Assembly (NCBI GenBank): GCA_023053545.1
Contig: JAKZAN010000002.1
Span: forward strand, 7,994,790 to 8,058,789
Length of the DNA stretch: 64,000 nucleotides
Direction of reading: 5' to 3'
Origin: Lepidurus packardi
Lineage: Eukaryota > Arthropoda > Branchiopoda > Notostraca > Triopsidae
Shown here: piece after piece, positions 1,215 through 21,793 of the stretch
Layout of the letters: each line of letters starts with the position of its first letter
Numbering within the stretch: the first letter of the stretch is position 1
The notes under the pieces: generated by a model
The model's database searches: none
Seen by the model: the letters and a program-made list of their open reading frames with translations, nothing else
What the model was told of the DNA's origin: nothing
Translations under genes and position numbers: made by a program

Positions 1215-1460
1215 TTTTAAAATTGCAAGCGAAGAGCGATTTCGCTCGCCAATTTTGAAGACCGATTTTTAGCTCTGGGCGCAAGTACAGCTCGTCTGAC
1301 CTGCTGCGTGTGTGCTTCGGTTGTGTTGTGTTGAGTGTTGCTCTTGCCTCTATATTAATGTGATAGTGAGATTAAATTTGTATTTAAGTTGTTGTCCTTT
1401 CTTTGTTAGTTATCATGTTGCTTGCAGTTTGCTAATTCTGCTCCTTACATTAAGTTTAAA

Positions 1461-4400
1461 ATGCAGGGTCTTGGTCCTGTGGATCGCGAGAAATTTGATT
1501 TAGTGGTACGACAAAAAGCCAGAGTTCGCAACTCGGTGATTATCACCAATGAGAAATATCAGAAGATTCTTGCCGAATTGCACAAACAAAAAGAAGGGGC
1601 GACGTTAAGTAATGAAATAAGTAGAAAATTTATTTTGCAAACTGACGAAAGCGGTGAGGAATACGTTGCGTGCTTTACTGAGCCGTCCCAAAGTATGGCA
1701 AAAGGGTACGCGCGTCAACCTTTCAAGCGCGTCGTCCGGGCTGAAGAAATGTACGATTACATCAAGAAGGTGCACGAAAATGACACGAATCATACGTCAC
1801 CTAGGGCGGCGTTTCATTATGTAAGTTAATTAAGCAATATATCAAGCTTACCATACTATAACATTGTTTTAGGTGCAAGCGTATTACTATGGAGTAACCC
1901 GTTTTTTAGTTGAAGAATATACCCAAATGTGCCCGTACTGTGCAACCAAAAAAGTCCAAACAAATGCAACTCCCATGAGGCACGTGGTTGCCAGTGATGT
2001 CATGTCACAAGGACAGGTAAGTGGTCCTGAGAAGATACGGGGAAAAGCTTACAGATTTTACTTTTCTTTGGTAGCTCGATCTGGTCCTTCTGCCGAAGAA
2101 GTCGGTTGTCGACGGGTATCGCTACATAGCCCAGTATGTAGACTTGGCGTCCCGTTTCCATATTCTATGGCCAATGCGCAAAAAAAATGGGACGGAAATC
2201 TATGAAGGCTTACTGAGATACGTGTTCAGCGTGTTTGGACCCCCAAAAAGGCTCCAGACAGATAATGGAACTGAATTTCGGGATCAAGTAATACTGTTAA
2301 CATGAACATGAACGGATACCAAAGGAAGATTAATATTATTTCACAGGCGTTGGCAGCGGGCTTAAGTAATTGGCCCATACAACATATCTTTGGAAGGGTA
2401 CGACATCCCCAAAGCCAAGGAGTAGTTGAGCGGGCCAACGCTGAGCTGAAGAAATTGCTTCGTAACCGCACGCTGACCGACAAGCAACAAAGAACCTGGC
2501 TCTACTGGCTGCCAGTAGTTCAGTGTAATATTCTTTTGATTAAACAATGAGGGATTTGGGTTTGTAATGGAATAATGTTGTATTTTATTTTCAGATCAAA
2601 TGAATACGAGAAGATCACAACCCATTGGCCAACTATCTTCATTCGCGGTCATGTTTGGGAAAGCTCCGGTACCTTATGGAAGACCGGAACTAAACCCAAC
2701 ACCAGCTGCTGATTATACCACTACGGAACTGCCATTGGGTCCTGATTCAGAAGATAGCGAGGAAGACGGATCAGAACCTCTTCCTACTCTGTCAGCGGAC
2801 TTCATTTTTCTAGATACCCTTGATGCTGTAAGTTTCTTCCAATGATGATGTTGTTCCTTCCAATGTTCCTGAGCTATCCCTTGAAAAATTATCTGTTTCG
2901 ACTCAGGAATTGGAACCTGAAGAGGACCCTTTTGCGCTAGCTTCCACGTCAACTGCCAATCCGGTCATCGAAGCCTACTGCGGTGGAGATGTGGTATGCC
3001 TGAAATCGCCGACTCAGGAGTTAATGGAACCTGAAGAGGACCCTTTTGCGCTAGCTTCCACGTCAACTGCCAATCCGGTCATCGAAGCCTACTGCGGTAG
3101 AAGTGGTGTGATCTGCACGGATGTTGAAGTCGCTGAAACGGACTCAGAGGTACTACCTGCGTGCACTTTTCCACCAAGAAAAAAAAAATTACTGCCATGG
3201 TTCATCATATTTAATTTTTTTATGTATTTTTATTTTAGCTTGACGGTGTTGCACCACTAAACGAGGATCGTCTGGCCATCTTCCGCTTTGTCCGCAGCCA
3301 AGCGGCAGCAGCATTATCCCATAGCCATGAAACTATGAATCAAAAGGCTGGGTTAAATCCGTGCAAACGCACAACCAAGCTAGAAGTAGGGAACCACGTT
3401 ACCGTGTTAATTCCCACCAAAGACCGGACAAGCTTGGAGAGCAGCCGCCTTCCAGGTATAGTCATCAGAGTGAGCGGTGATACATACCGAACCTACACCG
3501 TCCAGTCGTTCCACGGGGTACTTCGGGAGTCATATACGGAAAATCACTTAGAGCTTTATGAACAGAAATTTAAGCAACTCTACCATTGTAAAAGTTACGA
3601 AGTTATACCGCTAAGGACGGCGGTTCGACTTTTTTACGGCGGTAAAAGCAAAGTAGACATTTGCGAGTGTAAAAGTGATTGTGAAACTAAGCGGTGCAGG
3701 TGTAACCGAACGTTAAAAAATTGCACATCGGCTTGTCATGGTGGAAGGTACTGCCAAAACCAGGCGCTTTCTGAAACAAGTATGGCAGTTACACAATTAT
3801 ACTTTCAAGCTCTGAGGTTTAAAGTAAACGAAGTGATCGGCTCCGCATATAACCTTGCTGGTAATTTCTTCACTTTGTTTTGGGGCGAAGAGGGTAAGGT
3901 TTTGTTTTTCTTTTAGGAGATGTGAACTCTGACGATTCGAACGACTATTGCAAACCTGAATATCACGAACCGTACAGATCCATTCCGGTAGATGAAATGC
4001 AGGTGTTGTCGGAGCAAGGACTACAATATCGTTTGAAAGTCTCTGAAGACCATTTTTGGGATCAAGCTGGTAAGCACATAAATTATTTAAGAGAGATACA
4101 AGGCTTAAAGTCCCGACTTATTTATTTATGATCCAGATGCGACTTCTTGTAGCTGCCGTAAGATGTGTTTGAAAAAATTTTGCAAGTGCATGCAGGCCTC
4201 ACGGAGATGTACCGAACTTTGCCATGGCGAACAAGCTTGCAACAATGCCGAAGCACGAGAATTAAGTGAGTTGCAAATGAATATAACAATGTCAAACTTA
4301 TTCTGCGGTACAGAACATCAAGCAAAAAAATCTTCGAATGGGTGTGACTGCATTGAAGACTGCGATGTGGCAGAAGATTGTTCCTGTCGAGCATTCTGTG

Positions 4401-6232
4401 ATATGGAATGCACTTGCAGCAAGAACTGTTCAAAAAGTAAATCAATTTTGTGAATATATAATTTAATCCCGTTCCATACAACAATATATAATTACATGTA
4501 GGGAAAGGCCTCCCAACCCAGAATAACCGAATCATGTGTGACTGCACGGAGTCATGTATAAACAGTAAGGAATGTGAATGCAAGAAGGCTGACATTCCGT
4601 GTTGGTCGGCTTTGTGCCATAACGGAAGGACTTGCGATCTTATCGATGAGAACATGGGTAAGCTTATTACCATACTGCTGCAAAGAAAAACGCGAAGATG
4701 ACTACTCTAATTATTCAAAACAGAAACACAAGCGGGACCACGCGATGACCAGTCAGCGATTCAGTCCGCTGAACCACAATTCACTGATGCAGACATGGGT
4801 ACGCATTTTGATTCTTCCTCCTAAATTGCTGATTGATTTTTACTTTTCAATCATTTAAGCAGTCAACGAGGAGGCTATCCCTATGGAAGACGAACCACAG
4901 CCCTTAACTGAGGATGATTTATTTAAAAAATTCAACTGCCAATGCAAAGATAATTATTGCGCACCAAAATTCTGTCCTTGTCGAACGACCGTTAATTTGC
5001 TGGATCCAACTGACCTCTCCCGTACAATAAAATCTCTTCGATGCAGCACGACATGTCATAGAGGACGATTATGTTCAAACCAAGTTGAACGAAAAGGTAA
5101 TTTTATTGAAGAATTCAAACTTACCCGATTAAGATTTAATTACTTTTTGCTCGACAGTTACTAATAAGTTGGAGACGCTTTTTCATTCCACGAAACTCAA
5201 GCATTTACGCACGGTGCTACCGTCGTTATATGCTGCATATGCATGGATTCAGGCAAACATGCATCACTTTGAGGAGCATGTTACCATCCCCTACGTAAGG
5301 TATTCAATGGCACAAATTCCTCACCCTAAAATTCCTTTTATAGTTGGAACAAAAATGGAAATTAAACAACAAAATGGAAAAGCGTATTAAGGAAACGGGG
5401 GCCTTGGATTACCCCACTGTAATCCTGGATCGTGATTTGGATGATTACTGGTACCGCTATAGAATTATTGCTCACACCCCGGATGATTTAGAAATTCTGC
5501 GCGATGCAAAGATCTGTCTTCTTTGGGCTTCCAATGCTGTGACAATTGAAGCTTCGACTAACCGAAGTCCATACAAATTGCTCGAGTATCAGGTAGAAAA
5601 CAAGACATCTCTGCTATAACCTAACCTAAACCATTACTTTTCGGCAGCTAGCGATGGATTCCAAATCTAAGGCTGGGAAGCAGCAGTCGTCTCATGCTAC
5701 AACTGTCCTAAATTGGGCCGTAACACAAAAGGAACAAGGCAATCGCACAACGGTACGTGCGACCAGTTTTAAACATCCTTCGGTTCCGGCGTCGAGAAAA
5801 TTGCGAGCCGGACCACTAAAGTTTGAAAACATGCTGCCTACAGAAAAGACGCACTTAGTGTTATCGTGGCTTCTGAAGGAATCGAGTCTGGACAAAGGAA
5901 TTAAAAAACTAGAAAAGGCCGACAATAGCGATCTAAAATTAGATTCCCGGGCTATCTCGGATGGAGTTCTTGACCAGCGGGTTAACAAAGAATTTAACCG
6001 AGTATATACGTACCTCACACCGCAAGCCAAGATTACCGTAAAAAAGCTCATCGCAGAAAAGCGCGGGAAAAAGCTATTTTGCTGTCCTGCATGCAGTCTA
6101 CCGGCGAAAAACAAAACTGTACAGTGTGACCGATGCTTGTCATGGTTTCATTACCTTTGTGCAACGAATTTTCACATGGCGGAGCACAAGGATAAAGACT
6201 GGTTTTGTGGAACTTGTGGAAACAGCGACTAA
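1461..6232 (+). CDS. Integrase-type transposase fused to five CXC modules and a PHD finger (copy A)
   Basis: Sixteen exons (1461-1820, 1873-2016, 2075-2287, 2347-2524, 2595-2827, 2907-3149, 3239-3860, 3917-4069, 4137-4265, 4314-4436, 4502-4657, 4724-4798, 4863-5096, 5158-5294, 5344-5592, 5648-6232) with GT-AG introns join in frame to 3,834 nt, or 1,277 residues. Domains: H2C2 zinc finger (H105, H111, C140, C143); DDE core D170, D231, E267 (x60, x35) with QTDNGTEF and HPQSQGVVERAN; a KRBA2-like post-core domain starting VGNHVTVLIP at about 520; CXC modules near residues 599-631, 718-752, 769-798, 812-846 and 895-945; an unknown helical region; a C-terminal C4HC3 PHD finger from about 1227. In the DDE family the core cuts and joins element ends; CXC modules bind DNA and PHD fingers read histone tails. 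Roles here are inferred. A separate PHD gene starting at 5654 is the alternative. Confidence 0.75.
2910..3097 (+). repeat. 114-bp in-frame tandem duplication inside transposase exon 6
   Basis: A 73-bp segment starting ggaacctgaagaggaccc occurs at about 2910-2982 and again at about 3024-3096, with a 41-bp linker. The 114-bp period is divisible by three, so the acidic peptide EPEEDPFALASTST is encoded twice in frame. It lies in the low-complexity acidic linker between the integrase core and its C-terminal domain. The same duplication is in copy B. Confidence 0.9.
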
Positions 6233-6777
6233 AACTAAATTTTGAAAAGCCGACAATGTTTGCACTGTGTGACCTCAAATCAGAACGACGATGGTTGAGT
6301 GCTGGGATGCGACGATGGTTGCTGGGGGACGGAAGAACCGATATAGCATAGCTTTCCAACCCTTTCGGACCGTATCTTTCCAAGCCTTTCGAAGACAAAA
6401 CCTTCGGAAAACGTGTAAAATTTGTGTTGGCAGGAGGTAACGAAAAGAGTAAATAAACGGAAAATTTATTTCGGAAAAGGAGCTGCGTAAATTGTTAAAA
6501 CATTTCACCAAACAGACAAGATAGATAAAAACAAGGTTAACTTATGTATTCAAAGTTTTTAGACATACAAATTGAAAAAAATCACAAAATATGATAAAAG
6601 CACAATAAAAACCATTGAAAAAATCAAAAGCATACAATGTCCGATTAAACTACAAATCGTAAACTGGATTACAAAAACCGGAAACACAAAAGCATGAAGA
6701 GGATCAAAAGCATGAGTAATTTTCCTATACTATTTCATTCCGTCGATTACGCCGTCGTTTACTATAACGACAAATCA

Positions 6778-7233
6778 TTAGGATAAAGTTTTGTAATTAA
6801 AGCATTTCAGAGCGTACCAGTAAACCATAACTCCAAGTACGCAAATTACACAAACTGCAAGAACGACGAGGCTTGTAGCCACTCGAATGTAGGTACTTTC
6901 ATCTAAAGAATCGAATTTAGCATATTCTATTAAAAGAAAATGTATTACTATACCGCAATGCTCAATACGAGCATAGTAGGGTGCCAGCGGGTGCCCCGTA
7001 TCTTCGTTGAAACAGACGATGTCCCCGTCGTTGGGTCCAACCATGAAGGCACAGTCGCCATCACCAAGACACTCTTCACAATTATCAATTAAATTGCATT
7101 TTCCTGTAAGAAAAGAAAAAACGAAATTGGTAGCAAACGCCTTCACAGGAGATGGGAGGATATACCTTCCATGGTAAACAAGCTTCGCGCTCTTAGTAAG
7201 ACCACAGTAAAATGAGAAGTGGAATACGGTCAT
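6778..7233 (-). CDS. TIR-encoded small membrane protein (copy A, right arm)
   Basis: Exact inverted duplicate of the ORF at 192-647, transcribed toward the centre of the element and therefore convergent with the transposase gene. Same cysteine-rich stretch, single hydrophobic segment and possible short intron. Function unknown. Confidence 0.5.
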   Translation of the reverse strand: MTVFHFSFYCGLTKSAKLVYHGRYILPSPVKAFATNFVFSFLTGKCNLIDNCEECLGDGDCAFMVGPNDGDIVCFNEDTGHPLAPYYARIEHCGIVIHFLLIEYAKFDSLDESTYIRVATSLVVLAVCVICVLGVMVYWYALKCFNYKTLS

Positions 7234-7719
7234 CCCAAGTACTTATATTGAATATATAGACTGTACTTATATTGTTATATTCCGACCAATAGGGGAAATC
7301 CTTGTCCTTAAATGCACTGCGCACTCTTCACATTTACGAATCCCCTTAACTTCCCTTCCCTTTACATCACATATACGAATATTATATTTTCAATTTCGAT
7401 GCTAAGCATTTATTTGCTTTGTCTGCTACATAAGTTCAATTGAAATTTTAATAAATATAGGCATTCCATTTAGTGAACATACCCGAGTGAACCAAACTTT
7501 TGAAAATATACACACATTTGGTGTATATTGCACCATTATATTAAAAAAAGACATTTGCAGGCAATTCTTGAACATAGGGCAACCGATAGAGTTCAAAGTT
7601 GGGAACCTGAGTTCGGTATTGTGTAGAAAAAGCCCTTTCTCATAGCATGTTCACAGCACAAAGATAAACCACTTAATTTATTACATCAACAGGTTAAGTG
7701 TGCTATTAAATCTTATAAA

Positions 7720-8310
7720 AACTCTCTCAAAATAGGACGCTTATGGGGATTTCTTGAACTTGGGCTCCCCGAGTTCGAACTCGGGTTACCCGAGTTCGAA
7801 CTTGGGAAGCCCAAGTTCAGTATTGCGTAGAGAAAGGACTATTCACAGCTAGTTCACGACAAAAAGAGAAACCACTTAATTTATTACATCAACAGGTTAA
7901 GTGTGCTATTAAATCTTATAAAAACTCTCTCAAAATAGGACGCTTATGGGGATTTCTTGAACTTGGGCTCCCCGAGTTCGAACTCGGGTTACCCGAGTTC
8001 GAACTTGGGGAACCCAAGTTCAGTATTGCGTAGAGAAAGGACTATTCACAGCTAGTTCACGACAAAAAGAGAAACCACTTAATTTATTACATCAACTGGT
8101 TTAGTGTGCTATTAAATCTTATAAAAACTCTCCCAAAATAGGACGCTTATGGGGATTTCTTGAACTTGGGCTCCCCGAGTTCGAACTCGGGTTACCCGAG
8201 TTCGAACTTGGGGAGCCCAAGTTCAGTATTGCGTAGAGAAAGGACTATTCACAGCTAGTTCACGACAAAAAGAGAAACCACTTAATTTATTACATCAACA
8301 AGCTTATTAT
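7720..8310. repeat. Subterminal tandem array of palindromic units (copy A right arm)
   Basis: Three units of about 201-204 bp, aligned on ggacgcttatggggatttct at about 7736, 7937 and 8141. Each contains an imperfect palindrome of about 62 bp beginning gaacttgggctccccgag and built from repeats of GTTCGAAC. A diverged fourth unit follows at about 8577-8720. The units could be transposase-binding sites, as subterminal repeats are in other DNA transposons; that role is inferred. Confidence 0.85.
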
Positions 8311-8598
8311 TTTATACAATTTTACGAAAGGTCTCTCAAACTTTTTAAAATCATAAGCAAGATTTTTATTCAATCAAATTTTACAATATTGTCTCAATTC
8401 TTGAACAATATAGGGCTATTACCGATAGAGTTCTAACTTTTGGGAACCCGAGTTCGGTATTGTGTAGAAAAAGCCCCTTCTCATAGCACGTTCACAGCAC
8501 AAAGATAAACCACTTAATTTATTACATCAACAGGTTAAGTATGCTATTAAATCTTATAAAAACTCTCTCAAAATAGGACGCTTATGGGGAATTCTTGA

Positions 8599-9412
8599 GC
8601 TATATGTTTACCCAATAGTTCGAACTTATGCTGGGTAGCTCAAGTTCAGTATTATGTAGAGAGAGCACTTTTTCCATCGCATTTTCAGAACAAAAAGAAA
8701 CCAGTTAATTAATTTAATCAAGTTTACTACTCTATCATATGTATCGATTTTATTTAATACGCGAATACAAAGAGACCGAGCAACGCGGTCTCCTTTTCTT
8801 AACAACAACAAAAAAGTTTATTAACACTTTATTCACTATTTTAACTGCATGAACAATACATGAAACGCAACGGTGTAATCACTAAGAAAGGGTTACATTT
8901 ACAAGTACAAACTTGAATAGAAAGTAGGAGATTTGACACAACGAAGGTCTATGTTTGGATGTCGAATGAGAAGTTTTAAGCATCCTTCGATTTCTATGAA
9001 ATATATAAATACAAAATAGATTTAAAATGAATCTGTGTCTAAGTTAAGTAACTTCACATAAGTTCACTAAATCTTTTCCGTTAAAAGAGATACCATTTGT
9101 TTATATTTTTGTTCACGGCTTGAATAAAGAAAGAATAACAATTTTCATAAGCTTTATACTGGAGAGAAAATACAATTAACAGCGACTCCAACGGATCATG
9201 TTTGCAAGTAGATAAAGTCACACCCAAAGCTACACCCTTCTTTTGGAAAATGCCACGCCTCTGCAAAATGTGTCACGTCAAATATAAAGTTCATACTTTT
9301 AAGCATCGAACTTGGGCAGATGCCTCGCGTCCCAAGTTCAGTGTCTACCCAAGTACGAACTTGGGCTGCCCGAGCTCGAACTCGGGCAGATATCGAACTT
9401 GGGTCGCAACAT
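8599..9412. repeat. Right-flank segment duplicated at 19611-20424
   Basis: Non-coding. It begins with the decayed array unit, contains a stem-loop followed by a T-run at about 8774-8798, and ends with another palindromic block at about 9307-9405 built from the same cccaagttcgaacttggg-type words as the array. The segment is repeated almost exactly after copy B, and the two diverge at 9412/20424. The last block may be the true outer end of the element; no matching left end was found to test this. Confidence 0.75.
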
Positions 9413-9424
9413 ATTCAAGTAGAA

Positions 9425-9524
9425 NNNNNNNNNNNNNNNNNNNNNNNNNNNNNNNNNNNNNNNNNNNNNNNNNNNNNNNNNNNNNNNNNNNNNNNNNNNN
9501 NNNNNNNNNNNNNNNNNNNNNNNN
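9425..9524. other. Assembly gap of exactly 100 N
   Basis: A run of 100 undetermined bases, the conventional size for a gap of unknown length. It sits exactly between the two element copies, so their distance and true arrangement are not established. Confidence 0.99.
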
Positions 9525-9740
9525 CGTATGAAATGGCCTTCATTAGTGTCTCTTAGGTATCTCAATGTTAGGTGTCTCAAGGTACTGTTAATGGCGTCCA
9601 GTTCAATTTTGATTTGTCTATTTTCGTCGTTTCGTTTTGTTTGCATTTCTTTGATGAATTTTAGCATTGCGGTGTCGAGTTTCTCTATGCTACGTTGGCG
9701 ACTGTCTGTGAAGGTCAGATGTTTGATTTGCGTTCTGTTG
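9525..9740. other. Unique sequence left of copy B, possible exon on the minus strand
   Basis: Not repeated elsewhere in the window. On the minus strand it reads open for about 60 residues, from about 9737 down to the gap, with a charged heptad-like peptide (IEKLDTAMLKFIKEMQTK). This could be a coding exon of a host or element gene cut by the gap. No start or splice context supports it firmly. Confidence 0.3.
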
Positions 9741-9769: not shown

Positions 9770-10720
9770 CAATACCGAACTTAGGCTCCCCAAGTTCGAA
9801 CTCGGGTAACCCGAGTTCGAACTCGGGGAGCCCAAGTTCAAGAAATCCCCATAAGCGTCCTATTTTGAGAGAGTTTTTATAAGATTTAATAGCATACTTA
9901 ACCTGTTGATGTAATAAATTAAGTGGTTTATCTTTGTGCTGTGAACGTGCTATGAGAAGGGGCTTTTTCTACACAATACCGAACTCGGGTTCCCAAAAGT
10001 TAGAACTCTATCGGTAATAGCCCTATATTGTTCAAGAATTGAGACAATATTGTAAAATTTGATTGAATAAAAATCTTGCTTATGATTTTAAAAAGTTTGA
10101 GAGACCTTTCGTAAAATTGTATAAAATAATAAGCTTGTTGATGTAATAAATTAAGTGGTTTCTCTTTTTGTCGTGAACTAGCTGTGAATAGTCCTTTCTC
10201 TACGCAATACTGAACTTGGGCTCCCCAAGTTCGAACTCGGGTAACCCGAGTTCGAACTCGGGGAGCCCAAGTTCAAGAAATCCCCATAAGCGTCCTATTT
10301 TGGGAGAGTTTTTATAAGATTTAATAGCACACTAAACCAGTTGATGTAATAAATTAAGTGGTTTCTCTTTTTGTCGTGAACTAGCTGTGAATAGTCCTTT
10401 CTCTACGCAATACTGAACTTGGGTTCCCCAAGTTCGAACTCGGGTAACCCGAGTTCGAACTCGGGGAGCCCAAGTTCAAGAAATCCCCATAAGCGTCCTA
10501 TTTTGAGAGAGTTTTTATAAGATTTAATAGCACACTTAACCTGTTGATGTAATAAATTAAGTGGTTTCTCTTTTTGTCGTGAACTAGCTGTGAATAGTCC
10601 TTTCTCTACGCAATACTGAACTTGGGCTTCCCAAGTTCGAACTCGGGTAACCCGAGTTCGAACTCGGGGAGCCCAAGTTCAAGAAATCCCCATAAGCGTC
10701 CTATTTTGAGAGAGTTTTTA
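9770..10720. repeat. Subterminal tandem array of palindromic units (copy B left arm)
   Basis: Palindromic blocks lie at about 9776-9840, 10210-10275, 10415-10480 and 10612-10680, spaced by about 200 bp units, with a variant spacer at about 9990-10150. Each block reads as two GTTCGAAC-centred inverted repeats nested in a larger hairpin. This is the mirror image of the array at about 18755-19290. Confidence 0.85.
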
Positions 10721-12226
10721 TAAGATTTAATAGCACACTTAACCTGTTGATGTAATAAATTAAGTGGTTTATCTTTGTGCTGTGAACATGCTATGAGAAA
10801 GGGCTTTTTCTACACAATACCGAACTCAGGTTCCCAACTTTGAACTCTATCGGTTGCCCTATGTTCAAGAATTGCCTGCAAATGTCTTTTTTTAATATAA
10901 TGGTGCAATATACACCAAATGTGTGTATATTTTCAAAAGTTTGGTTCACTCGGGTATGTTCACTAAATGGAATGCCTATATTTATTAAAATTTCAATTGA
11001 ACTTATGTAGCAGACAAAGCAAATAAATGCTTAGCATCGAAATTGAAAATATAATATTCGTATATGTGATGTAAAGGGAAGGGAAGTTAAGGGGATTCGT
11101 AAATGTGAAGAGTGCGCAGTGCATTTAAGGACAAGGATTTCCCCTATTGGTCGGAATATAACAATATAAGTACAGTCTATATATTCAATATAAGTACTTG
11201 GGATGACCGTATTCCACTTCTCATTTTACTGTGGTCTTACTAAGAGCGCGAAGCTTGTTTACCATGGAAGGTATATCCTCCCATCTCCTGTGAAGGCGTT
11301 TGCTACCAATTTCGTTTTTTCTTTTCTTACAGGAAAATGCAATTTAATTGATAATTGTGAAGAGTGTCTTGGTGATGGCGACTGTGCCTTCATGGTTGGA
11401 CCCAACGACGGGGACATCGTCTGTTTCAACGAAGATACGGGGCACCCGCTGGCACCCTACTATGCTCGTATTGAGCATTGCGGTATAGTAATACATTTTC
11501 TTTTAATAGAATATGCTAAATTCGATTCTTTAGATGAAAGTACCTACATTCGAGTGGCTACAAGCCTCGTCGTTCTTGCAGTTTGTGTAATTTGCGTACT
11601 TGGAGTTATGGTTTACTGGTACGCTCTGAAATGCTTTAATTACAAAACTTTATCCTAATGATTTGTCGTTATAGTAAACGACGGCGTAATCGACGGAATG
11701 AAATAGTATAGGAAAATTACTCATGCTTTTGATCCTCTTCATGCTTTTGTGTTTCCGGTTTTTGTAATCCAGTTTACGATTTGTAGTTTAATCGGACATT
11801 GTATGCTTTTGATTTTTTCAATGGTTTTTATTGTGCTTTTATCATATTTTGTGATTTTTTTCAATTTGTATGTCTAAAAACTTTGAATACATAAGTTAAC
11901 CTTGTTTTTATCTATCTTGTCTGTTTGGTGAAATGTTTTAACAATTTACGCAGCTCCTTTTCCGAAATAAATTTTCCGTTTATTTACTCTTTTCGTTACC
12001 TCCTGCCAACACAAATTTTACACGTTTTCCGAAGGTTTTGTCTTCGAAAGGCTTGGAAAGATACGGTCCGAAAGGGTTGGAAAGCTATGCTATATCGGTT
12101 CTTCCGTCCCCCAGCAACCATCGTCGCATCCCAGCACTCAACCATCGTCGTTCTGATTTGAGGTCACACAGTGCAAACATTGTCGGCTTTTCAAAATTTA
12201 GTTTTAGTCGCTGTTTCCAGAAGTTC
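9838..12226 (+). repeat. Left terminal inverted repeat of copy B, about 2.39 kb
   Basis: Inverted complement of 17222-19610. From outside to inside it holds the palindrome array, an AT-rich spacer, the membrane-protein ORF (11203-11658) and a further non-coding stretch. The inner boundary falls where the sequence stops matching the 3' coding end of the transposase. Confidence 0.9.
11203..11658 (+). CDS. TIR-encoded small membrane protein (copy B, left arm)
   Basis: Identical to the copy A ORF at 192-647. It has a cysteine-rich stretch with a CEECL run, one hydrophobic segment and a short tail; a spliced version starting at an ACCATGG near 11266 is possible. It is not recognised as a transposition protein. 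Its identity across four arms shows sequence homogenisation or very recent copying, not necessarily selection on the protein. Confidence 0.5.
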   Translation: MTVFHFSFYCGLTKSAKLVYHGRYILPSPVKAFATNFVFSFLTGKCNLIDNCEECLGDGDCAFMVGPNDGDIVCFNEDTGHPLAPYYARIEHCGIVIHFLLIEYAKFDSLDESTYIRVATSLVVLAVCVICVLGVMVYWYALKCFNYKTLS

Positions 12227-12472
12227 TTTTAAAATTGCAAGCGAAGAGCGATTTCGCTCGCCAATTTTGAAGACCGATTTTTAGCTCTGGGCGCAAGTAC
12301 AGCTCGTCTGACCTGCTGCGTGTGTGCTTCGGTTGTGTTGTGTTGAGTGTTGCTCTTGCCTCTATATTAATGTGATAGTGAGATTAAATTTGTATTTAAG
12401 TTGTTGTCCTTTCTTTGTTAGTTATCATGTTGCTTGCAGTTTGCTAATTCTGCTCCTTACATTAAGTTTAAA

Positions 12473-15400
12473 ATGCAGGGTCTTGGTCCTGTGGATCGCG
12501 AGAAATTTGATTTAGTGGTACGACAAAAAGCCAGAGTTCGCAACTCGGTGATTATCACCAATGAGAAATATCAGAAGATTCTTGCCGAATTGCACAAACA
12601 AAAAGAAGGGGCGACGTTAAGTAATGAAATAAGTAGAAAATTTATTTTGCAAACTGACGAAAGCGGTGAGGAATACGTTGCGTGCTTTACTGAGCCGTCC
12701 CAAAGTATGGCAAAAGGGTACGCGCGTCAACCTTTCAAGCGCGTCGTCCGGGCTGAAGAAATGTACGATTACATCAAGAAGGTGCACGAAAATGACACGA
12801 ATCATACGTCACCTAGGGCGGCGTTTCATTATGTAAGTTAATTAAGCAATATATCAAGCTTACCATACTATAACATTGTTTTAGGTGCAAGCGTATTACT
12901 ATGGAGTAACCCGTTTTTTAGTTGAAGAATATACCCAAATGTGCCCGTACTGTGCAACCAAAAAAGTCCAAACAAATGCAACTCCCATGAGGCACGTGGT
13001 TGCCAGTGATGTCATGTCACAAGGACAGGTAAGTGGTCCTGAGAAGATACGGGGAAAAGCTTACAGATTTTACTTTTCTTTGGTAGCTCGATCTGGTCCT
13101 TCTGCCGAAGAAGTCGGTTGTCGACGGGTATCGCTACATAGCCCAGTATGTAGACTTGGCGTCCCGTTTCCATATTCTATGGCCAATGCGCAAAAAAAAT
13201 GGGACGGAAATCTATGAAGGCTTACTGAGATACGTGTTCAGCGTGTTTGGACCCCCAAAAAGGCTCCAGACAGATAATGGAACTGAATTTCGGGATCAAG
13301 TAATACTGTTAACATGAACATGAACGGATACCAAAGGAAGATTAATATTATTTCACAGGCGTTGGCAGCGGGCTTAAGTAATTGGCCCATACAACATATC
13401 TTTGGAAGGGTACGACATCCCCAAAGCCAAGGAGTAGTTGAGCGGGCCAACGCTGAGCTGAAGAAATTGCTTCGTAACCGCACGCTGACCGACAAGCAAC
13501 AAAGAACCTGGCTCTACTGGCTGCCAGTAGTTCAGTGTAATATTCTTTTGATTAAACAATGAGGGATTTGGGTTTGTAATGGAATAATGTTGTATTTTAT
13601 TTTCAGATCAAATGAATACGAGAAGATCACAACCCATTGGCCAACTATCTTCATTCGCGGTCATGTTTGGGAAAGCTCCGGTACCTTATGGAAGACCGGA
13701 ACTAAACCCAACACCAGCTGCTGATTATACCACTACGGAACTGCCATTGGGTCCTGATTCAGAAGATAGCGAGGAAGACGGATCAGAACCTCTTCCTACT
13801 CTGTCAGCGGACTTCATTTTTCTAGATACCCTTGATGCTGTAAGTTTCTTCCAATGATGATGTTGTTCCTTCCAATGTTCCTGAGCTATCCCTTGAAAAA
13901 TTATCTGTTTCGACTCAGGAATTGGAACCTGAAGAGGACCCTTTTGCGCTAGCTTCCACGTCAACTGCCAATCCGGTCATCGAAGCCTACTGCGGTGGAG
14001 ATGTGGTATGCCTGAAATCGCCGACTCAGGAGTTAATGGAACCTGAAGAGGACCCTTTTGCGCTAGCTTCCACGTCAACTGCCAATCCGGTCATCGAAGC
14101 CTACTGCGGTAGAAGTGGTGTGATCTGCACGGATGTTGAAGTCGCTGAAACGGACTCAGAGGTACTACCTGCGTGCACTTTTCCACCAAGAAAAAAAAAA
14201 TTACTGCCATGGTTCATCATATTTAATTTTTTTATGTATTTTTATTTTAGCTTGACGGTGTTGCACCACTAAACGAGGATCGTCTGGCCATCTTCCGCTT
14301 TGTCCGCAGCCAAGCGGCAGCAGCATTATCCCATAGCCATGAAACTATGAATCAAAAGGCTGGGTTAAATCCGTGCAAACGCACAACCAAGCTAGAAGTA
14401 GGGAACCACGTTACCGTGTTAATTCCCACCAAAGACCGGACAAGCTTGGAGAGCAGCCGCCTTCCAGGTATAGTCATCAGAGTGAGCGGTGATACATACC
14501 GAACCTACACCGTCCAGTCGTTCCACGGGGTACTTCGGGAGTCATATACGGAAAATCACTTAGAGCTTTATGAACAGAAATTTAAGCAACTCTACCATTG
14601 TAAAAGTTACGAAGTTATACCGCTAAGGACGGCGGTTCGACTTTTTTACGGCGGTAAAAGCAAAGTAGACATTTGCGAGTGTAAAAGTGATTGTGAAACT
14701 AAGCGGTGCAGGTGTAACCGAACGTTAAAAAATTGCACATCGGCTTGTCATGGTGGAAGGTACTGCCAAAACCAGGCGCTTTCTGAAACAAGTATGGCAG
14801 TTACACAATTATACTTTCAAGCTCTGAGGTTTAAAGTAAACGAAGTGATCGGCTCCGCATATAACCTTGCTGGTAATTTCTTCACTTTGTTTTGGGGCGA
14901 AGAGGGTAAGGTTTTGTTTTTCTTTTAGGAGATGTGAACTCTGACGATTCGAACGACTATTGCAAACCTGAATATCACGAACCGTACAGATCCATTCCGG
15001 TAGATGAAATGCAGGTGTTGTCGGAGCAAGGACTACAATATCGTTTGAAAGTCTCTGAAGACCATTTTTGGGATCAAGCTGGTAAGCACATAAATTATTT
15101 AAGAGAGATACAAGGCTTAAAGTCCCGACTTATTTATTTATGATCCAGATGCGACTTCTTGTAGCTGCCGTAAGATGTGTTTGAAAAAATTTTGCAAGTG
15201 CATGCAGGCCTCACGGAGATGTACCGAACTTTGCCATGGCGAACAAGCTTGCAACAATGCCGAAGCACGAGAATTAAGTGAGTTGCAAATGAATATAACA
15301 ATGTCAAACTTATTCTGCGGTACAGAACATCAAGCAAAAAAATCTTCGAATGGGTGTGACTGCATTGAAGACTGCGATGTGGCAGAAGATTGTTCCTGTC

Positions 15401-17244
15401 GAGCATTCTGTGATATGGAATGCACTTGCAGCAAGAACTGTTCAAAAAGTAAATCAATTTTGTGAATATATAATTTAATCCCGTTCCATACAACAATATA
15501 TAATTACATGTAGGGAAAGGCCTCCCAACCCAGAATAACCGAATCATGTGTGACTGCACGGAGTCATGTATAAACAGTAAGGAATGTGAATGCAAGAAGG
15601 CTGACATTCCGTGTTGGTCGGCTTTGTGCCATAACGGAAGGACTTGCGATCTTATCGATGAGAACATGGGTAAGCTTATTACCATACTGCTGCAAAGAAA
15701 AACGCGAAGATGACTACTCTAATTATTCAAAACAGAAACACAAGCGGGACCACGCGATGACCAGTCAGCGATTCAGTCCGCTGAACCACAATTCACTGAT
15801 GCAGACATGGGTACGCATTTTGATTCTTCCTCCTAAATTGCTGATTGATTTTTACTTTTCAATCATTTAAGCAGTCAACGAGGAGGCTATCCCTATGGAA
15901 GACGAACCACAGCCCTTAACTGAGGATGATTTATTTAAAAAATTCAACTGCCAATGCAAAGATAATTATTGCGCACCAAAATTCTGTCCTTGTCGAACGA
16001 CCGTTAATTTGCTGGATCCAACTGACCTCTCCCGTACAATAAAATCTCTTCGATGCAGCACGACATGTCATAGAGGACGATTATGTTCAAACCAAGTTGA
16101 ACGAAAAGGTAATTTTATTGAAGAATTCAAACTTACCCGATTAAGATTTAATTACTTTTTGCTCGACAGTTACTAATAAGTTGGAGACGCTTTTTCATTC
16201 CACGAAACTCAAGCATTTACGCACGGTGCTACCGTCGTTATATGCTGCATATGCATGGATTCAGGCAAACATGCATCACTTTGAGGAGCATGTTACCATC
16301 CCCTACGTAAGGTATTCAATGGCACAAATTCCTCACCCTAAAATTCCTTTTATAGTTGGAACAAAAATGGAAATTAAACAACAAAATGGAAAAGCGTATT
16401 AAGGAAACGGGGGCCTTGGATTACCCCACTGTAATCCTGGATCGTGATTTGGATGATTACTGGTACCGCTATAGAATTATTGCTCACACCCCGGATGATT
16501 TAGAAATTCTGCGCGATGCAAAGATCTGTCTTCTTTGGGCTTCCAATGCTGTGACAATTGAAGCTTCGACTAACCGAAGTCCATACAAATTGCTCGAGTA
16601 TCAGGTAGAAAACAAGACATCTCTGCTATAACCTAACCTAAACCATTACTTTTCGGCAGCTAGCGATGGATTCCAAATCTAAGGCTGGGAAGCAGCAGTC
16701 GTCTCATGCTACAACTGTCCTAAATTGGGCCGTAACACAAAAGGAACAAGGCAATCGCACAACGGTACGTGCGACCAGTTTTAAACATCCTTCGGTTCCG
16801 GCGTCGAGAAAATTGCGAGCCGGACCACTAAAGTTTGAAAACATGCTGCCTACAGAAAAGACGCACTTAGTGTTATCGTGGCTTCTGAAGGAATCGAGTC
16901 TGGACAAAGGAATTAAAAAACTAGAAAAGGCCGACAATAGCGATCTAAAATTAGATTCCCGGGCTATCTCGGATGGAGTTCTTGACCAGCGGGTTAACAA
17001 AGAATTTAACCGAGTATATACGTACCTCACACCGCAAGCCAAGATTACCGTAAAAAAGCTCATCGCAGAAAAGCGCGGGAAAAAGCTATTTTGCTGTCCT
17101 GCATGCAGTCTACCGGCGAAAAACAAAACTGTACAGTGTGACCGATGCTTGTCATGGTTTCATTACCTTTGTGCAACGAATTTTCACATGGCGGAGCACA
17201 AGGATAAAGACTGGTTTTGTGGAACTTGTGGAAACAGCGACTAA
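12473..17244 (+). CDS. Integrase-type transposase fused to five CXC modules and a PHD finger (copy B)
   Basis: Same 16-exon structure as the copy A gene, shifted by 11,012 bp, and also open throughout (1,277 residues). The start ATG at 12473 follows an AT-rich leader and opens the conserved N-terminal peptide QGLGPVDREKFD; an in-frame upstream ATG at 12434 exists but lies in pyrimidine-rich leader sequence. The DDE triad, the H2C2 finger and all zinc-ligand cysteines of the CXC modules are kept. CXC3 lacks the CH...C half, and CXC5 has a spacer of about 14 residues before its third cysteine group. Integrase plus CXC is known from KRBA2-like transposon proteins as I recall them; five CXC modules plus a terminal PHD finger in one chain is not a combination I recognise. 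Confidence 0.78.
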
Positions 17245-17789
17245 AACTAAATTTTGAAAAGCCGACAATGTTTGCACTGTGTGACCTCAAATCAGAACGA
17301 CGATGGTTGAGTGCTGGGATGCGACGATGGTTGCTGGGGGACGGAAGAACCGATATAGCATAGCTTTCCAACCCTTTCGGACCGTATCTTTCCAAGCCTT
17401 TCGAAGACAAAACCTTCGGAAAACGTGTAAAATTTGTGTTGGCAGGAGGTAACGAAAAGAGTAAATAAACGGAAAATTTATTTCGGAAAAGGAGCTGCGT
17501 AAATTGTTAAAACATTTCACCAAACAGACAAGATAGATAAAAACAAGGTTAACTTATGTATTCAAAGTTTTTAGACATACAAATTGAAAAAAATCACAAA
17601 ATATGATAAAAGCACAATAAAAACCATTGAAAAAATCAAAAGCATACAATGTCCGATTAAACTACAAATCGTAAACTGGATTACAAAAACCGGAAACACA
17701 AAAGCATGAAGAGGATCAAAAGCATGAGTAATTTTCCTATACTATTTCATTCCGTCGATTACGCCGTCGTTTACTATAACGACAAATCA

Positions 17790-18245
17790 TTAGGATAAAG
17801 TTTTGTAATTAAAGCATTTCAGAGCGTACCAGTAAACCATAACTCCAAGTACGCAAATTACACAAACTGCAAGAACGACGAGGCTTGTAGCCACTCGAAT
17901 GTAGGTACTTTCATCTAAAGAATCGAATTTAGCATATTCTATTAAAAGAAAATGTATTACTATACCGCAATGCTCAATACGAGCATAGTAGGGTGCCAGC
18001 GGGTGCCCCGTATCTTCGTTGAAACAGACGATGTCCCCGTCGTTGGGTCCAACCATGAAGGCACAGTCGCCATCACCAAGACACTCTTCACAATTATCAA
18101 TTAAATTGCATTTTCCTGTAAGAAAAGAAAAAACGAAATTGGTAGCAAACGCCTTCACAGGAGATGGGAGGATATACCTTCCATGGTAAACAAGCTTCGC
18201 GCTCTTAGTAAGACCACAGTAAAATGAGAAGTGGAATACGGTCAT
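17790..18245 (-). CDS. TIR-encoded small membrane protein (copy B, right arm)
   Basis: Inverted duplicate of 11203-11658; convergent with the transposase gene. The same uncertainties about splicing and function apply. Confidence 0.5.
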   Translation of the reverse strand: MTVFHFSFYCGLTKSAKLVYHGRYILPSPVKAFATNFVFSFLTGKCNLIDNCEECLGDGDCAFMVGPNDGDIVCFNEDTGHPLAPYYARIEHCGIVIHFLLIEYAKFDSLDESTYIRVATSLVVLAVCVICVLGVMVYWYALKCFNYKTLS

Positions 18246-18754
18246 CCCAAGTACTTATATTGAATATATAGACTGTACTTATATTGTTATATTCCGACCA
18301 ATAGGGGAAATCCTTGTCCTTAAATGCACTGCGCACTCTTCACATTTACGAATCCCCTTAACTTCCCTTCCCTTTACATCACATATACGAATATTATATT
18401 TTCAATTTCGATGCTAAGCATTTATTTGCTTTGTCTGCTACATAAGTTCAATTGAAATTTTAATAAATATAGGCATTCCATTTAGTGAACATACCCGAGT
18501 GAACCAAACTTTTGAAAATATACACACATTTGGTGTATATTGCACCATTATATTAAAAAAAGACATTTGCAGGCAATTCTTGAACATAGGGCAACCGATA
18601 GAGTTCAAAGTTGGGAACCTGAGTTCGGTATTGTGTAGAAAAAGCCCTTTCTCATAGCATGTTCACAGCACAAAGATAAACCACTTAATTTATTACATCA
18701 ACAGGTTAAGTGTGCTATTAAATCTTATAAAAACTCTCTCAAAATAGGACGCTT

Positions 18755-19290
18755 ATGGGGATTTCTTGAACTTGGGCTCCCCGAGTTCGAACTCGGGTTA
18801 CCCGAGTTCGAACTTGGGAAGCCCAAGTTCAGTATTGCGTAGAGAAAGGACTATTCACAGCTAGTTCACGACAAAAAGAGAAACCACTTAATTTATTACA
18901 TCAACAGGTTAAGTGTGCTATTAAATCTTATAAAAACTCTCTCAAAATAGGACGCTTATGGGGATTTCTTGAACTTGGGCTCCCCGAGTTCGAACTCGGG
19001 TTACCCGAGTTCGAACTTGGGGAACCCAAGTTCAGTATTGCGTAGAGAAAGGACTATTCACAGCTAGTTCACGACAAAAAGAGAAACCACTTAATTTATT
19101 ACATCAACTGGTTTAGTGTGCTATTAAATCTTATAAAAACTCTCCCAAAATAGGACGCTTATGGGGATTTCTTGAACTTGGGCTCCCCGAGTTCGAACTC
19201 GGGTTACCCGAGTTCGAACTTGGGGAGCCCAAGTTCAGTATTGCGTAGAGAAAGGACTATTCACAGCTAGTTCACGACAAAAAGAGAAAC
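18755..19290. repeat. Subterminal tandem array of palindromic units (copy B right arm)
   Basis: Three palindromic blocks at about 18768-18833, 18968-19028 and 19173-19233, mirroring those in the left arm. The inner sequence of each unit (ttaaatcttataaaaactct and flanks) is also shared, so the whole unit of about 200 bp is the repeating element. Confidence 0.85.
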
Positions 19291-19610
19291 CACTTAATTT
19301 ATTACATCAACAAGCTTATTATTTTATACAATTTTACGAAAGGTCTCTCAAACTTTTTAAAATCATAAGCAAGATTTTTATTCAATCAAATTTTACAATA
19401 TTGTCTCAATTCTTGAACAATATAGGGCTATTACCGATAGAGTTCTAACTTTTGGGAACCCGAGTTCGGTATTGTGTAGAAAAAGCCCCTTCTCATAGCA
19501 CGTTCACAGCACAAAGATAAACCACTTAATTTATTACATCAACAGGTTAAGTATGCTATTAAATCTTATAAAAACTCTCTCAAAATAGGACGCTTATGGG
19601 GAATTCTTGA

Positions 19611-20424
19611 GCTATATGTTTACCCAATAGTTCGAACTTATGCTGGGTAGCTCAAGTTCAGTATTATGTAGAGAGAGCACTTTTTCCATCGCATTTTCAG
19701 AACAAAAAGAAACCAGTTAATTAATTTAATCAAGTTTACTACTCTATCATATGTATCGATTTTATTTAATACGCGAATACAAAGAGACCGAGCAACGCGG
19801 TCTCCTTTTCTTAACAACAACAAAAAAGTTTATTAACACTTTATTCACTATTTTAACTGCATGAACAATACATGAAACGCAACGGTGTAATCACTAAGAA
19901 AGGGTTACATTCACAAGTACAAACTTGAATAGAAAGTAGGAGATTTGACACAACGAAGGTCTATGTTTGGATGTCGAATGAGAAGTTTTAAGCATCCTTC
20001 GATTTCTATGAAATATATAAATACAAAATAGATTTAAAATGAATCTGTGTCTAAGTTAAGTAACTTCACATAAGTTCACTAAATCTTTTCCGTTAAAAGA
20101 GATACCATTTGTTTATATTTTTGTTCACGGCTTGAATAAAGAAAGAATAACAATTTTCATAAGCTTTATACTGGAGAGAAAATACAATTAACAGCGACTC
20201 CAACGGATCATGTTTGCAAGTAGATAAAGTCACACCCAAAGCTACACCCTTCTTTTGGAAAATGCCACGCCTCTGCAAAATGTGTCACGTCAAATATAAA
20301 GTTCATACTTTTAAGCATCGAACTTGGGCAGATGCCTCGCGTCCCAAGTTCAGTGTCTACCCAAGTACGAACTTGGGCTGCCCGAGCTCGAACTCGGGCA
20401 GATATCGAACTTGGGTCGCAACAG
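19611..20424. repeat. Right flank of copy B, duplicate of 8599-9412
   Basis: One substitution (19931 area, C for T) was noticed between the two versions. After 20424 the sequence is single-copy, which marks the right breakpoint of the duplicated block. Confidence 0.8.
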
Positions 20425-21793
20425 TGCTATTGGATGTTGGGCAGGTCTAATCTTTGAACCATGAACCATTTTGTCACGCACTAAACCGCACACGGTCTTC
20501 TTGGCAAGATGAGCGTTGTTCGAAGGAATGGTGGACTTTTAACGTATGTATTGATAAGGTTCTTAGTAAGTGAACACTCTAAGATAGACACTCTATAAGA
20601 ATTCCGTGGTAGAATGCTAGTTAACTCAAACTCTTAAAACACGACAACGACTTCCATCCACATACCATGTCATTGTTACACTATGTCGCAAACGTGCGAT
20701 TTAAAATCTGACTTCTGACCTCTGACCTGACACAAGTCTCAACTCGAAACGACTCAAGGCGTGAACTAATTGCCCACATCTTTTATACACAACAACGGCC
20801 CGAGCGCTTCACGCCGGAATAGCAGTTAACGAGGCTAAGGCGCCAAGCTACCGGAGTCGCCGGACGGAGATTCTCAGGTGCCCTATGCTATACTACATCG
20901 CAACATGGCGAAGCTTTCTGATCCCGCGCCACGAGTCAATGCTATTACAATGTATCCATACAATGCCTTGTCAGCACATCTCGTACTTGGAGATGAATAA
21001 GCAACGAAACTGCATGTGGTAGGAACGCTGATCATGCGAAATATAAGCAATGACTATATAATTTAGGCCATGACAATTGCTAGCTGAAATCTATCGAAAG
21101 CTACTAGACAAGAATTGGTTCATCTGTACATAATTACGTCAAGAAATTCCCCTGAGCTTGCACTGTAGCATGCTTTAACACGATGAAAGGTGAGGAAGTT
21201 CAACTTTTCTAATACCTCCGTCGAAATCTAGAGTTTGAACCAATAAGCCGTCCGAGGTGTCGAAAGAACGCGAAATGTGAAAGTGGGAAATAGTACAACA
21301 AGAATCGATCCTGCGAAAGCGCGTGAGCGAAATCGCGAAGCGTGGTACAATGGAAAAATATTAGTTGTGTGAAATAGTATGACAAAATTTGAAATAAAAC
21401 TTAAAGGGGGAACTAAACACCATGTATTATGTTTACAAATGAAGTAGTAAATGCTAGTGAATAAATATCCAAAAGAAATGGTATGTCTAAATATAAGAAT
21501 TATAGCGAATTCGCAAATTTGTCGGTGAATTTGTCATAACGGCAACCTCGGCGAAAGCCAAGTCAGGCAGTTCCACCACTTCTACACTAGAATAATCTGG
21601 CAGATGTCAGCACCCTCGGAACCTTAAAAGAAAATCCCTTTGTTTAAACTTGAGTAGAACAGCAGCGCCGTATTGGTACCATTAGAAACATTCCTTTCAA
21701 AAGGCTACGTCAGTAAAACACTAAACAAGAAATATAAACAAGTTCTTGCTGTCCGTTTTGTGTGAGAATTATAATTAATACCAGCAATTAATC
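20425..21793. other. Intergenic sequence upstream of TAF9
   Basis: No convincing ORF, RNA gene or repeat seen. Moderately AT-rich, with scattered short palindromes only. The last few hundred bases presumably hold the TAF9 promoter; no clear TATA or initiator could be fixed. Confidence 0.5.

What the first reader, a model, noticed from the sequence alone, without database searches (positions are those of the whole stretch)
12473..17244. One-chain transposase joining a DD35E integrase, five CXC modules and a PHD finger
Seen: 16 exons join in frame to 3,834 nt with no stop. They include a complete DDE triad (D170, D231, E267), an H2C2 finger, five cysteine-rich CXC modules and a C4HC3 PHD finger at the very end. 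Known: integrase-derived DNA transposons (Ginger/KRBA2-like) can carry accessory domains; CXC modules bind DNA and PHD fingers read histone H3 tails. Inference: the protein may couple end recognition (CXC on subterminal repeats) to chromatin-directed target choice (PHD), as chromodomains do in some gypsy elements. I do not recognise this full architecture as described.
Basis: partly seen in the sequence, partly recalled or inferred. Interest (0 to 1): 0.9.

Follow-up and report, generated by a model that had tools for sequence, protein, structure and literature searches.

The report
Integrase-type transposon with envelope-gene cargo
The protein belongs to a large (about 13 kb) cut-and-paste DNA transposon that jumped recently in what is probably an arthropod genome; its moving enzyme fuses a retrovirus-type integrase to cysteine-rich modules and a histone-reading type of finger, and the transposon also carries remains of a virus-like envelope gene.

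Summary
At 12473-17244(+), 15 exons (not 16) join into one 1,293-aa frame with a DD35E integrase core (D170, D231, E267), H2C2 residues, five cysteine-rich modules and a C-terminal PHD finger. Scanned as pieces, the PHD passes Pfam's cut-off; of five CXC-like modules one does.

The gene is the transposase of a larger mobile element. Ends are TGTTGCGACCCAAGT...ACTTGGGTCGCAACA; uninterrupted gene-bearing copies are 12.8-13.1 kb; 17 of 18 end pairs have identical 4-bp target duplications, in a palindromic preference TGG-NN-CCA. The arms beside the gene carry 52 half-sites CCCRAGTTC, against 0 in the gene and 1 in 43 kb of host DNA: probable transposase-binding arrays. The outer left arm carries a Baculovirus-F-like envelope ORF, 262 aa in ten gene-bearing copies but 478-541 aa in four elements without the gene.

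It works like a Ginger transposon but fails defining tests of Ginger1 and Ginger2. PHD-guided targeting is untested. The window's two gene copies are most likely one insertion assembled twice (TSD GTGC). I found no described relative; Repbase was unavailable.

The parts
12473..17244 (+). Transposase gene, 15 exons: 12473-12832, 12885-13028, 13087-13299, 13359-13536, 13607-13839, 13919-14161, 14251-14872, 14929-15081, 15149-15448, 15514-15669, 15736-15810, 15875-16108, 16170-16306, 16356-16604, 16660-17244; 1,293 aa
   Evidence: Exon joining and frame; leave-one-out codon test 15 of 15 exons; ten full-length copies at 99-100%
12785..12953 (+). H2C2 residues H105, H111, C140, C143 (spans intron 1)
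   Evidence: Positions; Pfam Integrase_H2C2 17.1 bits, below the 25.5 cut-off
13090..13442 (+). DD35E catalytic core: D170 (13090-13092), D231 (13273-13275), E267 (13440-13442)
   Evidence: Pfam rve 6.1e-12; PFV integrase 6.7e-10 over residues 181-321; spacing
14674..14766 (+). Cysteine-rich module 1 (residues 599-629)
   Evidence: TCR 12.3 bits, below cut-off; 39% identical to the module 2 stretch, E 0.06-0.18
15160..15252 (+). Cysteine-rich module 2 (residues 720-750), CXC/tesmin type
   Evidence: TCR 25.1 bits, above the 23.5 cut-off when scanned alone
15355..15441 (+). Cysteine-rich module 3 (from residue 785)
   Evidence: Cysteine pattern only; no Pfam match
15549..15647 (+). Cysteine-rich module 4 (from residue 828)
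   Evidence: Cysteine pattern only; no TCR match
15949..16086 (+). Cysteine-rich module 5 (from residue 918)
   Evidence: Cysteine pattern only; no Pfam match
17056..17235 (+). PHD finger (about residues 1232-1291)
   Evidence: Pfam PHD 27.3 bits, cut-off 24, scanned as a piece; TAF3 PHD in the PDB, best 9.9e-8, 3e-6 with the whole chain
9835..12226 (.). Left inner inverted arm (2,392 bp), with 203-bp tandem repeats at 10136-10847
   Evidence: Inverted repeat I1; 99.875%; tandem repeats
17222..19613 (.). Right inner inverted arm (2,392 bp), with 203-bp tandem repeats at 18601-19312
11194..11658 (+). ORF for a small cysteine-containing protein with one strongly hydrophobic segment (left arm)
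   Evidence: hydropathy 2.84; genome matches at copies of this element apart from one of E=0.003; no Pfam family
17790..18254 (-). The same ORF in the right arm
9525..9552 (-). First codons of the envelope-like (Baculo_F) ORF; the rest lies in the gap here and, in the first copy, left of the window at G000:C2:7993183-7993968
   Evidence: L025:3292-4080 minus strand, Baculo_F 8.5e-10; places; L025 4053 = window 9525
20409..20423 (.). Right terminus ACTTGGGTCGCAACA
20424..20427 (.). Target-site duplication GTGC; its partner ends at G000:C2:7991758, left of the window
1..9411 (.). Same sequence as 11012-20423 (99.98%), gene copy at 1461-6232: most likely the same insertion assembled twice
   Evidence: left flank of this copy (GTGC) matches the right flank of the other
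9425..9524 (.). 100-N scaffold gap

Best explanation
A recently active cut-and-paste DNA transposon of about 13 kb with a Ginger-like integrase transposase. Shown by sequence: precise ends (TG...CA with a 15-bp terminal inverted repeat), 4-bp target duplications, near-identical dispersed copies, shorter relatives without the gene down to 214 bp, and a one-frame transposase model with integrase, cysteine-rich modules and PHD. Inferred: the cysteine-rich array binds the CCCRAGTTC half-sites at the ends and along the arms; the integrase core cuts behind CA and joins the ends at sites staggered by 4 bp within TGG-NN-CCA; the PHD finger binds histone H3 tails and biases insertion or tethers the complex to chromatin. 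The envelope-like gene and the small membrane protein are cargo; the envelope frame is short in the gene-bearing copies and is probably not needed for transposition.
For: Ten full-length gene copies at 99-100%. Terminal 14-mer 48 times in 108.6 Mb, backward-read control 0; 17 of 18 convergent pairs with identical 4-bp flanks. Target palindrome: mean 3.89 of 6 matches at 18 sites, unchanged on leave-one-out, host background 1.43, 0 of 20,000 random sets as high. CCCRAGTTC, both strands: 28 in the 5.1-kb left arm, 24 in the 3.2-kb right arm, 5 in the 214-bp copy, 0 in the gene, 1 in 43 kb host (part of the arm count is tandem repetition). Seven of the ten gene copies (six insertions, if the window holds one) have no frame-breaking change; the other three share a 1-nt exon-3 indel. 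Domains.
Against: No transcript or protein data. Four of five CXC-like modules fall below or outside the profile, the cysteine-rich region matches nothing in the PDB at E up to 10, and single-sequence structure models were uninformative (mean pLDDT 38 and 35). Between copies, 14 non-synonymous (one is the stop codon) and 9 synonymous changes, with about 3.0 to 1 expected without selection, give only weak evidence of constraint; the PHD part has 2 and 0. No relative with this architecture was found, so conservation cannot be used. One of 18 end pairs lacks an exact TSD.
Confidence: 0.8

Rival explanations
1. The exons belong to two adjacent genes: an integrase-CXC transposase ending before intron 14, and a separate PHD protein that starts at the ATG near the start of exon 15, both carried by the transposon.
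For: Exon 15 is long (585 nt) with an ATG as its third codon; the intron-14 donor GTAGAA looks weaker than most others by eye; no relative fixes the fusion.
Against: The frame is kept across the 55-nt intron 14, and the assigned frame is best in exons 13-15 as in the rest. A second promoter or an earlier polyadenylation site was not looked for.
Confidence: 0.15
2. It is a host gene or domesticated integrase duplicated with its surroundings, not a transposase.
For: A 15-exon gene with a chromatin-reading type of domain; copies are nearly identical, as recent segmental duplicates would be.
Against: Copies lie in different flanks with exact shared ends and identical 4-bp flanks in 17 of 18 pairs, and a 214-bp copy has the same ends.
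Confidence: 0.02
3. It is a decayed Gypsy-type LTR retroelement (integrase plus env) misread as a DNA transposon.
For: Integrase core matches retroelement and retroviral integrases; TG...CA ends; a Baculo_F-type env ORF.
Against: Ends are inverted, not direct repeats; the transposase chain has no RT, RNase H, protease or gag match in Pfam at E up to 1.
Confidence: 0.03

Closest known systems
Ginger1 DNA transposons (PMC2836005, parts 1-2 of 4 of the main section read)
   Same: Gypsy-like integrase transposase with H2C2 and DDE; TGTNR ends (here TGTTG); 4-bp TSD; introns; extra C-terminal domains, with PHD in one family (Ginger1-9_HM)
   Different: Published Ginger1: CCGG or CCGT targets, 2.6-7 kb, TIRs 40-270 bp, OTU or Ulp1 domain, GPY/F and YPYY motifs. 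Here: target TGG-NN-CCA, 13 kb, 2.4-kb inner inverted arms, no OTU or Ulp1 match, five CXC-like modules
Ginger2/TDD DNA transposons (PMC2836005)
   Same: Integrase transposase with H2C2 and DDE; TGTNR ends; 4-bp TSD in animals
   Different: Published target RTATAY and TIRs of 45-297 bp (its Table 2); here target TGG-NN-CCA and far longer arms
KRBA2-/SCAND3-like integrase proteins (recalled, from no call)
   Same: From memory, a similar integrase core and a cysteine-rich stretch after it
   Different: Not compared with any sequence here; a lead only. Paper searches listed nothing on the point by title or abstract start
Mavericks of nematodes with a fusogen (PMC10680173, passage read, on Widen et al. 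2023)
   Same: An integrase-bearing DNA transposon that carries an envelope-fusion type of gene
   Different: Mavericks encode a DNA polymerase and capsid proteins and have 6-bp TSDs (PMC10680173, PMC10045372 passages); such genes were not seen among the ORFs examined here, and the envelope frame is short in the gene-bearing copies
Teratorn (PMC10175614, start of abstract seen in a search listing only)
   Same: A DNA transposon combined with virus-derived genes
   Different: piggyBac-like and 180 kb, not integrase-type; not compared further
LIN54/tesmin CXC DNA-binding domains (PMC4974476, passages read)
   Same: Module 2 fits the TCR profile; the arm palindromes centre on TTCGAA, which fits TTYRAA
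   Different: At the position where I recall the minor-groove tyrosine (before the fourth cysteine) the five modules have R, F, D, E, F

Membership tests
Ginger1 | TGTNR terminus | tested here: met
   TGTTG at both ends
Ginger1 | 4-bp TSD | tested here: met
   17 of 18 pairs
Ginger1 | CCGG or CCGT/ACGG target | tested here: not met
   0 of the 17 identical TSDs, nor GTGC at the window's insertion, is CCGG, CCGT or ACGG
Ginger1 | TIR of 40-270 bp | tested here: not met
   15-bp terminal repeat plus 2,392-bp inner inverted arms
Ginger1 | OTU or Ulp1 protease domain | tested here: not met
   No such Pfam match in the 1,293-aa protein at E up to 1
Ginger1 | GPY/F and YPYY motifs | tested here: inconclusive
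   Not seen by eye in the translation; no profile was available
Ginger2 | H2C2 and DDE integrase | tested here: inconclusive
   rve above cut-off; H2C2 residues present but profile below cut-off
Ginger2 | TGTNR terminus and 4-bp TSD | tested here: met
Ginger2 | RTATAY target | tested here: not met
   One of 17 TSDs is TATA; consensus is TGG-NN-CCA
Ginger2 | TIR of 45-297 bp | tested here: not met
   15-bp terminal repeat plus 2,392-bp inner inverted arms
Ginger1 or Ginger2 | Placement in the integrase tree | not testable with these tools
   No reference Ginger sequences were at hand
Polinton/Maverick | 6-bp TSD | tested here: not met
   4 bp
Polinton/Maverick | DNA polymerase and capsid genes | tested here: inconclusive
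   Largest left-arm ORF is 262 aa; not every arm ORF was scanned against Pfam
LTR retrotransposon | Direct LTRs and RT | tested here: not met
   Inverted ends; no RT match in the transposase
PHD finger | Profile match | tested here: met
   27.3 bits against cut-off 24 as a piece; TAF3 PHD 9.9e-8; not listed in the whole-chain Pfam scan
CXC (TCR) domain | Profile match | tested here: inconclusive
   One of five modules above cut-off; none matched the PDB
LIN54-type DNA reading | Minor-groove tyrosine in each CXC | tested here: inconclusive
   0 of 5 modules have Y before the fourth cysteine; that this is the position is recalled, the paper passages give only residue numbers
Baculovirus F-type envelope | F1 part with cleavage site and membrane anchor | tested here: met
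   541-aa frame of L043: Baculo_F 1.8e-20, profile 136-577 of 609; hydrophobic segment 498-516 and RQKRG
Baculovirus F-type envelope | Signal peptide and F2 in the same frame | tested here: not met
   The frame starts shortly before RQKRG and the profile match at position 136 of 609

The most novel reading that the evidence does not exclude
A cut-and-paste DNA transposon that has become virus-like: an integrase transposase that reads its ends through a CXC array and chromatin through a PHD finger, carrying a fusion envelope and a membrane protein that once let it, or still let short relatives, pass between cells or species.
Probability: 0.1. Interest if true: 0.92.

Novelty: new variant of a known kind. 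Interest (0 to 1): 0.6.

Why it matters
It gives a young, multi-copy integrase-type DNA transposon in which end recognition by repeated sites, a target palindrome and chromatin reading can be tested separately: a 214-bp copy defines the ends. It also places an envelope-type gene on a cut-and-paste transposon, which bears on how such genes move between retroelements, DNA transposons and viruses.

Tried and rejected
Homologues of the whole chain: three database searches. One was wasted on exon 1 alone (3 candidates, no hit). The whole protein gave 11 hits at E<=10 among the 7,985 candidates scored (the list of candidates was capped), covering 7-19% of the query; 7 of 11 also carry RT and two more copia-type domains. 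Residues 560-1293 gave none of 3,112 candidates at E<=10. Viral contigs, with 203 aa of the integrase core: 11 pattern stretches, none a relative. P0009, an integrase plus PHD protein, aligns significantly only in the integrase core.

LIN54-like reading of TTCGAA by the CXC array: TTCGAA is enriched in the arms (14 against 2.0 expected left, 8 against 1.4 right; gene 2 against 1.9; 40 kb host 13 against 15.7), but the tyrosines seem absent, so I keep only the weaker claim that the arms hold candidate binding sites.

Tandem duplication in the window: rejected in favour of one insertion assembled twice, because the TSD partner of the left copy is the right flank of the other copy. The left copy is 639 bp shorter left of the gene than C2:8430189 (coordinates), which may be collapsed repeats.

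Structure prediction of exons 9 and 15: low confidence, not used. A first alignment of gene copies had one copy reversed and was replaced. Selection on the envelope ORF: between two copies 2 synonymous and 25 non-synonymous differences; all but four of the latter lie after residue 480, where one frame runs out differently: no sign of constraint.
Full report
WHAT WAS CHECKED. In a leave-one-out codon test the assigned frame scored highest in 15 of 15 exons (stops in the other frames help that score, but exons 11 and 13 have a second stop-free frame and still prefer the assigned one); exons are 45.8% GC and introns 31.6%.

DOMAINS. Pfam, whole chain: rve 6.1e-12 (residues 182-260), TCR 16.8 bits, below cut-off, PHD not listed. 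Scanned as pieces: PHD 3.6e-6, 27.3 bits, above cut-off; TCR (CXC) for module 2, 25.1 bits, above cut-off; module 1, 12.3 bits; modules 3-5 no TCR match; Integrase_H2C2 17.1 bits, below cut-off. Among solved structures the core matches foamy-virus integrase (6.7e-10, residues 181-321) and the PHD matches TAF3's PHD (9.9e-8); the cysteine-rich region matches nothing at E up to 10. The triad is D170, D231, E267, with 35 residues between the last two. TAF3's PHD reads H3K4me3 (recalled); in the alignment the tryptophan before FH/YH is kept and the tryptophan near the first cysteines is phenylalanine here, so methyl-lysine reading is possible but not shown.

MOBILE ELEMENT. The gene occurs full length at 99-100% in 10 places of the window's 108.6-Mb genome (two of the ten are the window's). 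Comparing flanks of eight copies outside the window gave sharp ends, TGTTGCGACCCAAGT...ACTTGGGTCGCAACA; one of the eight (C6) lacks the right end and one (C3:2973k) has its left end further out. The terminal 14-mer occurs 48 times, its backward-read control 0 times. Eighteen convergent pairs were examined; 17 have identical 4-bp flanks, the exception being C2:7191717 (acct/cctt). Of the other 12 end hits three belong to the window and nine were left unpaired. Lengths of the 18: six of 12,831-13,081 bp; four of 15,061-18,950 bp; one of 11,306 bp, in which sequence with a gag-like ORF interrupts the right end; six of 3,602-5,373 bp; one of 214 bp.

ONE INSERTION, NOT TWO. Window 1-9411 repeats 11012-20423 at 99.98% across a 100-N gap. 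The left copy's left flank, about 3 kb outside the window, ends GTGC; the right copy's right flank begins GTGC; the left copy's own right flank is TATT..., 13 bases long before the gap. The simplest reading is one insertion with TSD GTGC, assembled twice.

TARGET. Eighteen empty sites (17 exact pairs plus the window; the inexact pair dropped) show a palindrome TGG-NN-CCA around the TSD: on both strands together T 26/36, G 22/36, G 22/36 and their mirror images. Sites match 3.89 of 6 positions on average, the same when each is scored with a consensus from the other 17; random host sites match 1.43, and 0 of 20,000 sets of 18 reached the observed mean. Ginger1 targets CCGG/CCGT and Ginger2 RTATAY (PMC2836005).

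ARMS. The gene lies between inverted arms of 2,392 bp, 99.9% alike; within eight of eight copies measured the longest matching arm piece (1,862-2,371 bp) is 99.6-99.96% alike. In two of the eight paired copies that hold the gene (C3:6607576 and C3:7592035) the gene is flipped relative to the outer ends (read), as recombination between the arms would do. The arms carry 203-bp tandem repeats and 21-bp periods. In copy C2:8430189 the half-site CCCRAGTTC, counted on both strands, occurs 28 times in the whole left arm (5,130 bp) and 24 in the right (3,180 bp), against 5 in the 214-bp copy, 0 in the gene and 1 in 43 kb of host DNA; much of the arm count comes from the 203-bp repeats, so the sites are not independent. 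The terminus itself contains CCCAAGT. These are the best candidates for transposase-binding sites; that the cysteine-rich array binds them is inference.

CARGO. Both arms hold an ORF of 154 aa with a strongly hydrophobic segment; it matches no Pfam family and, apart from one match of E=0.003, its genome matches lie in copies of this element. In a second subfamily its frame changes at residues 96-98, which may mark a short intron. The outer left arm, 2.5 kb without counterpart in the right arm, encodes on the minus strand a Baculovirus-F-like ORF (8.5e-10). In ten gene-bearing insertions its open frame is 262 aa; in the seven shorter elements without the gene (the 214-bp one aside, the interrupted 11.3-kb one included) four have frames of 478, 512, 512 and 541 aa and three 262, 262 and 230 (places set against the pairs). 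I read two of the four (C1 and C5). The 541-aa frame matches Baculo_F positions 136-577 of 609 (1.8e-20) and two PDB sequences named 'fusion protein' (9w4c, 9w4d; 1.5e-9), and has a hydrophobic segment near its end. It has no signal peptide or F2 part in frame. In one search, 44 of 67 matches are more distant (23-44% identity) and were not followed. The two frames compared show no sign of selection.

ACTIVITY. Seven of ten gene copies, six insertions if the window holds one, have no frame-breaking change; three share a 1-nt indel in exon 3. Variation among the ten is 34 sites: 14 non-synonymous (one of them the stop codon), 9 synonymous, 10 intronic, 1 exonic indel. This is recent mobility; whether it moves now is unknown.

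HOST. TTAGG arrays, one at the very end of contig C3, point to an arthropod (telomere type recalled). The species is not known.

LITERATURE. Full-text searches for 'Ginger + DNA transposon + integrase + PHD finger' and 'transposase + CXC domain + integrase + PHD' returned 0 papers; searches for envelope genes on DNA transposons (20 of 43 listed, 15 of 29, 8 of 10, 3 of 3) listed none that by title or abstract start describes one on a Ginger-like element. Repbase and most subscription journals were not searchable. PMC2836005: parts 1-2 of 4 of its main section and passages. PMC10045372, PMC4974476, PMC10680173, PMC6431247, PMC12863088: passages only. PMC10175614: listing only.

VERDICT. It works like a Ginger transposon, but the target, TIR and protease-domain tests fail for Ginger1 and the target and TIR tests for Ginger2, so I do not file it as either. 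It is a new variant of the integrase-type cut-and-paste transposons; its most unusual features are the long repeat-filled arms, the cysteine-rich array plus PHD on one chain, the target palindrome and the envelope-type cargo.

Noticed in passing
window 49087-51595 (-): hAT-type transposase: Dimer_Tnp_hAT 1.3e-10 and DUF4371 3.8e-9 in the 587-aa ORF; the neighbouring 276-aa ORF has no match.
   Followed up: partly
window 43693-46457 (+): Gag-like ORF with two CCHC knuckles overlapping an ORF with a retroviral-type aspartyl protease and a long coiled-coil-like stretch.
   Followed up: partly
L043 5684 onward (G000:C1:7279183 on): Sequence with a gag-like ORF (by eye) interrupts a short copy about 55 bases before its right end; the end itself lies further on, at C1:7286681.
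   Followed up: partly
L037 and L038 (G000:C2, about 836 kb and 690 kb): Two decayed relatives of the transposase (74-76% DNA identity in most pieces) with stop codons; only parts of residues 1-191 and 461-566 match, none of the cysteine-rich or PHD part.
   Followed up: partly
G000, many contigs: 44 more distant F-like envelope matches (23-44% identity to the element's own) in this small genome, many in open frames of more than 450 aa.
   Followed up: no
window 13923-14113: A 77-bp direct repeat (99%) at 114-bp spacing in exon 6 of the transposase, duplicating an acidic stretch.
   Followed up: no
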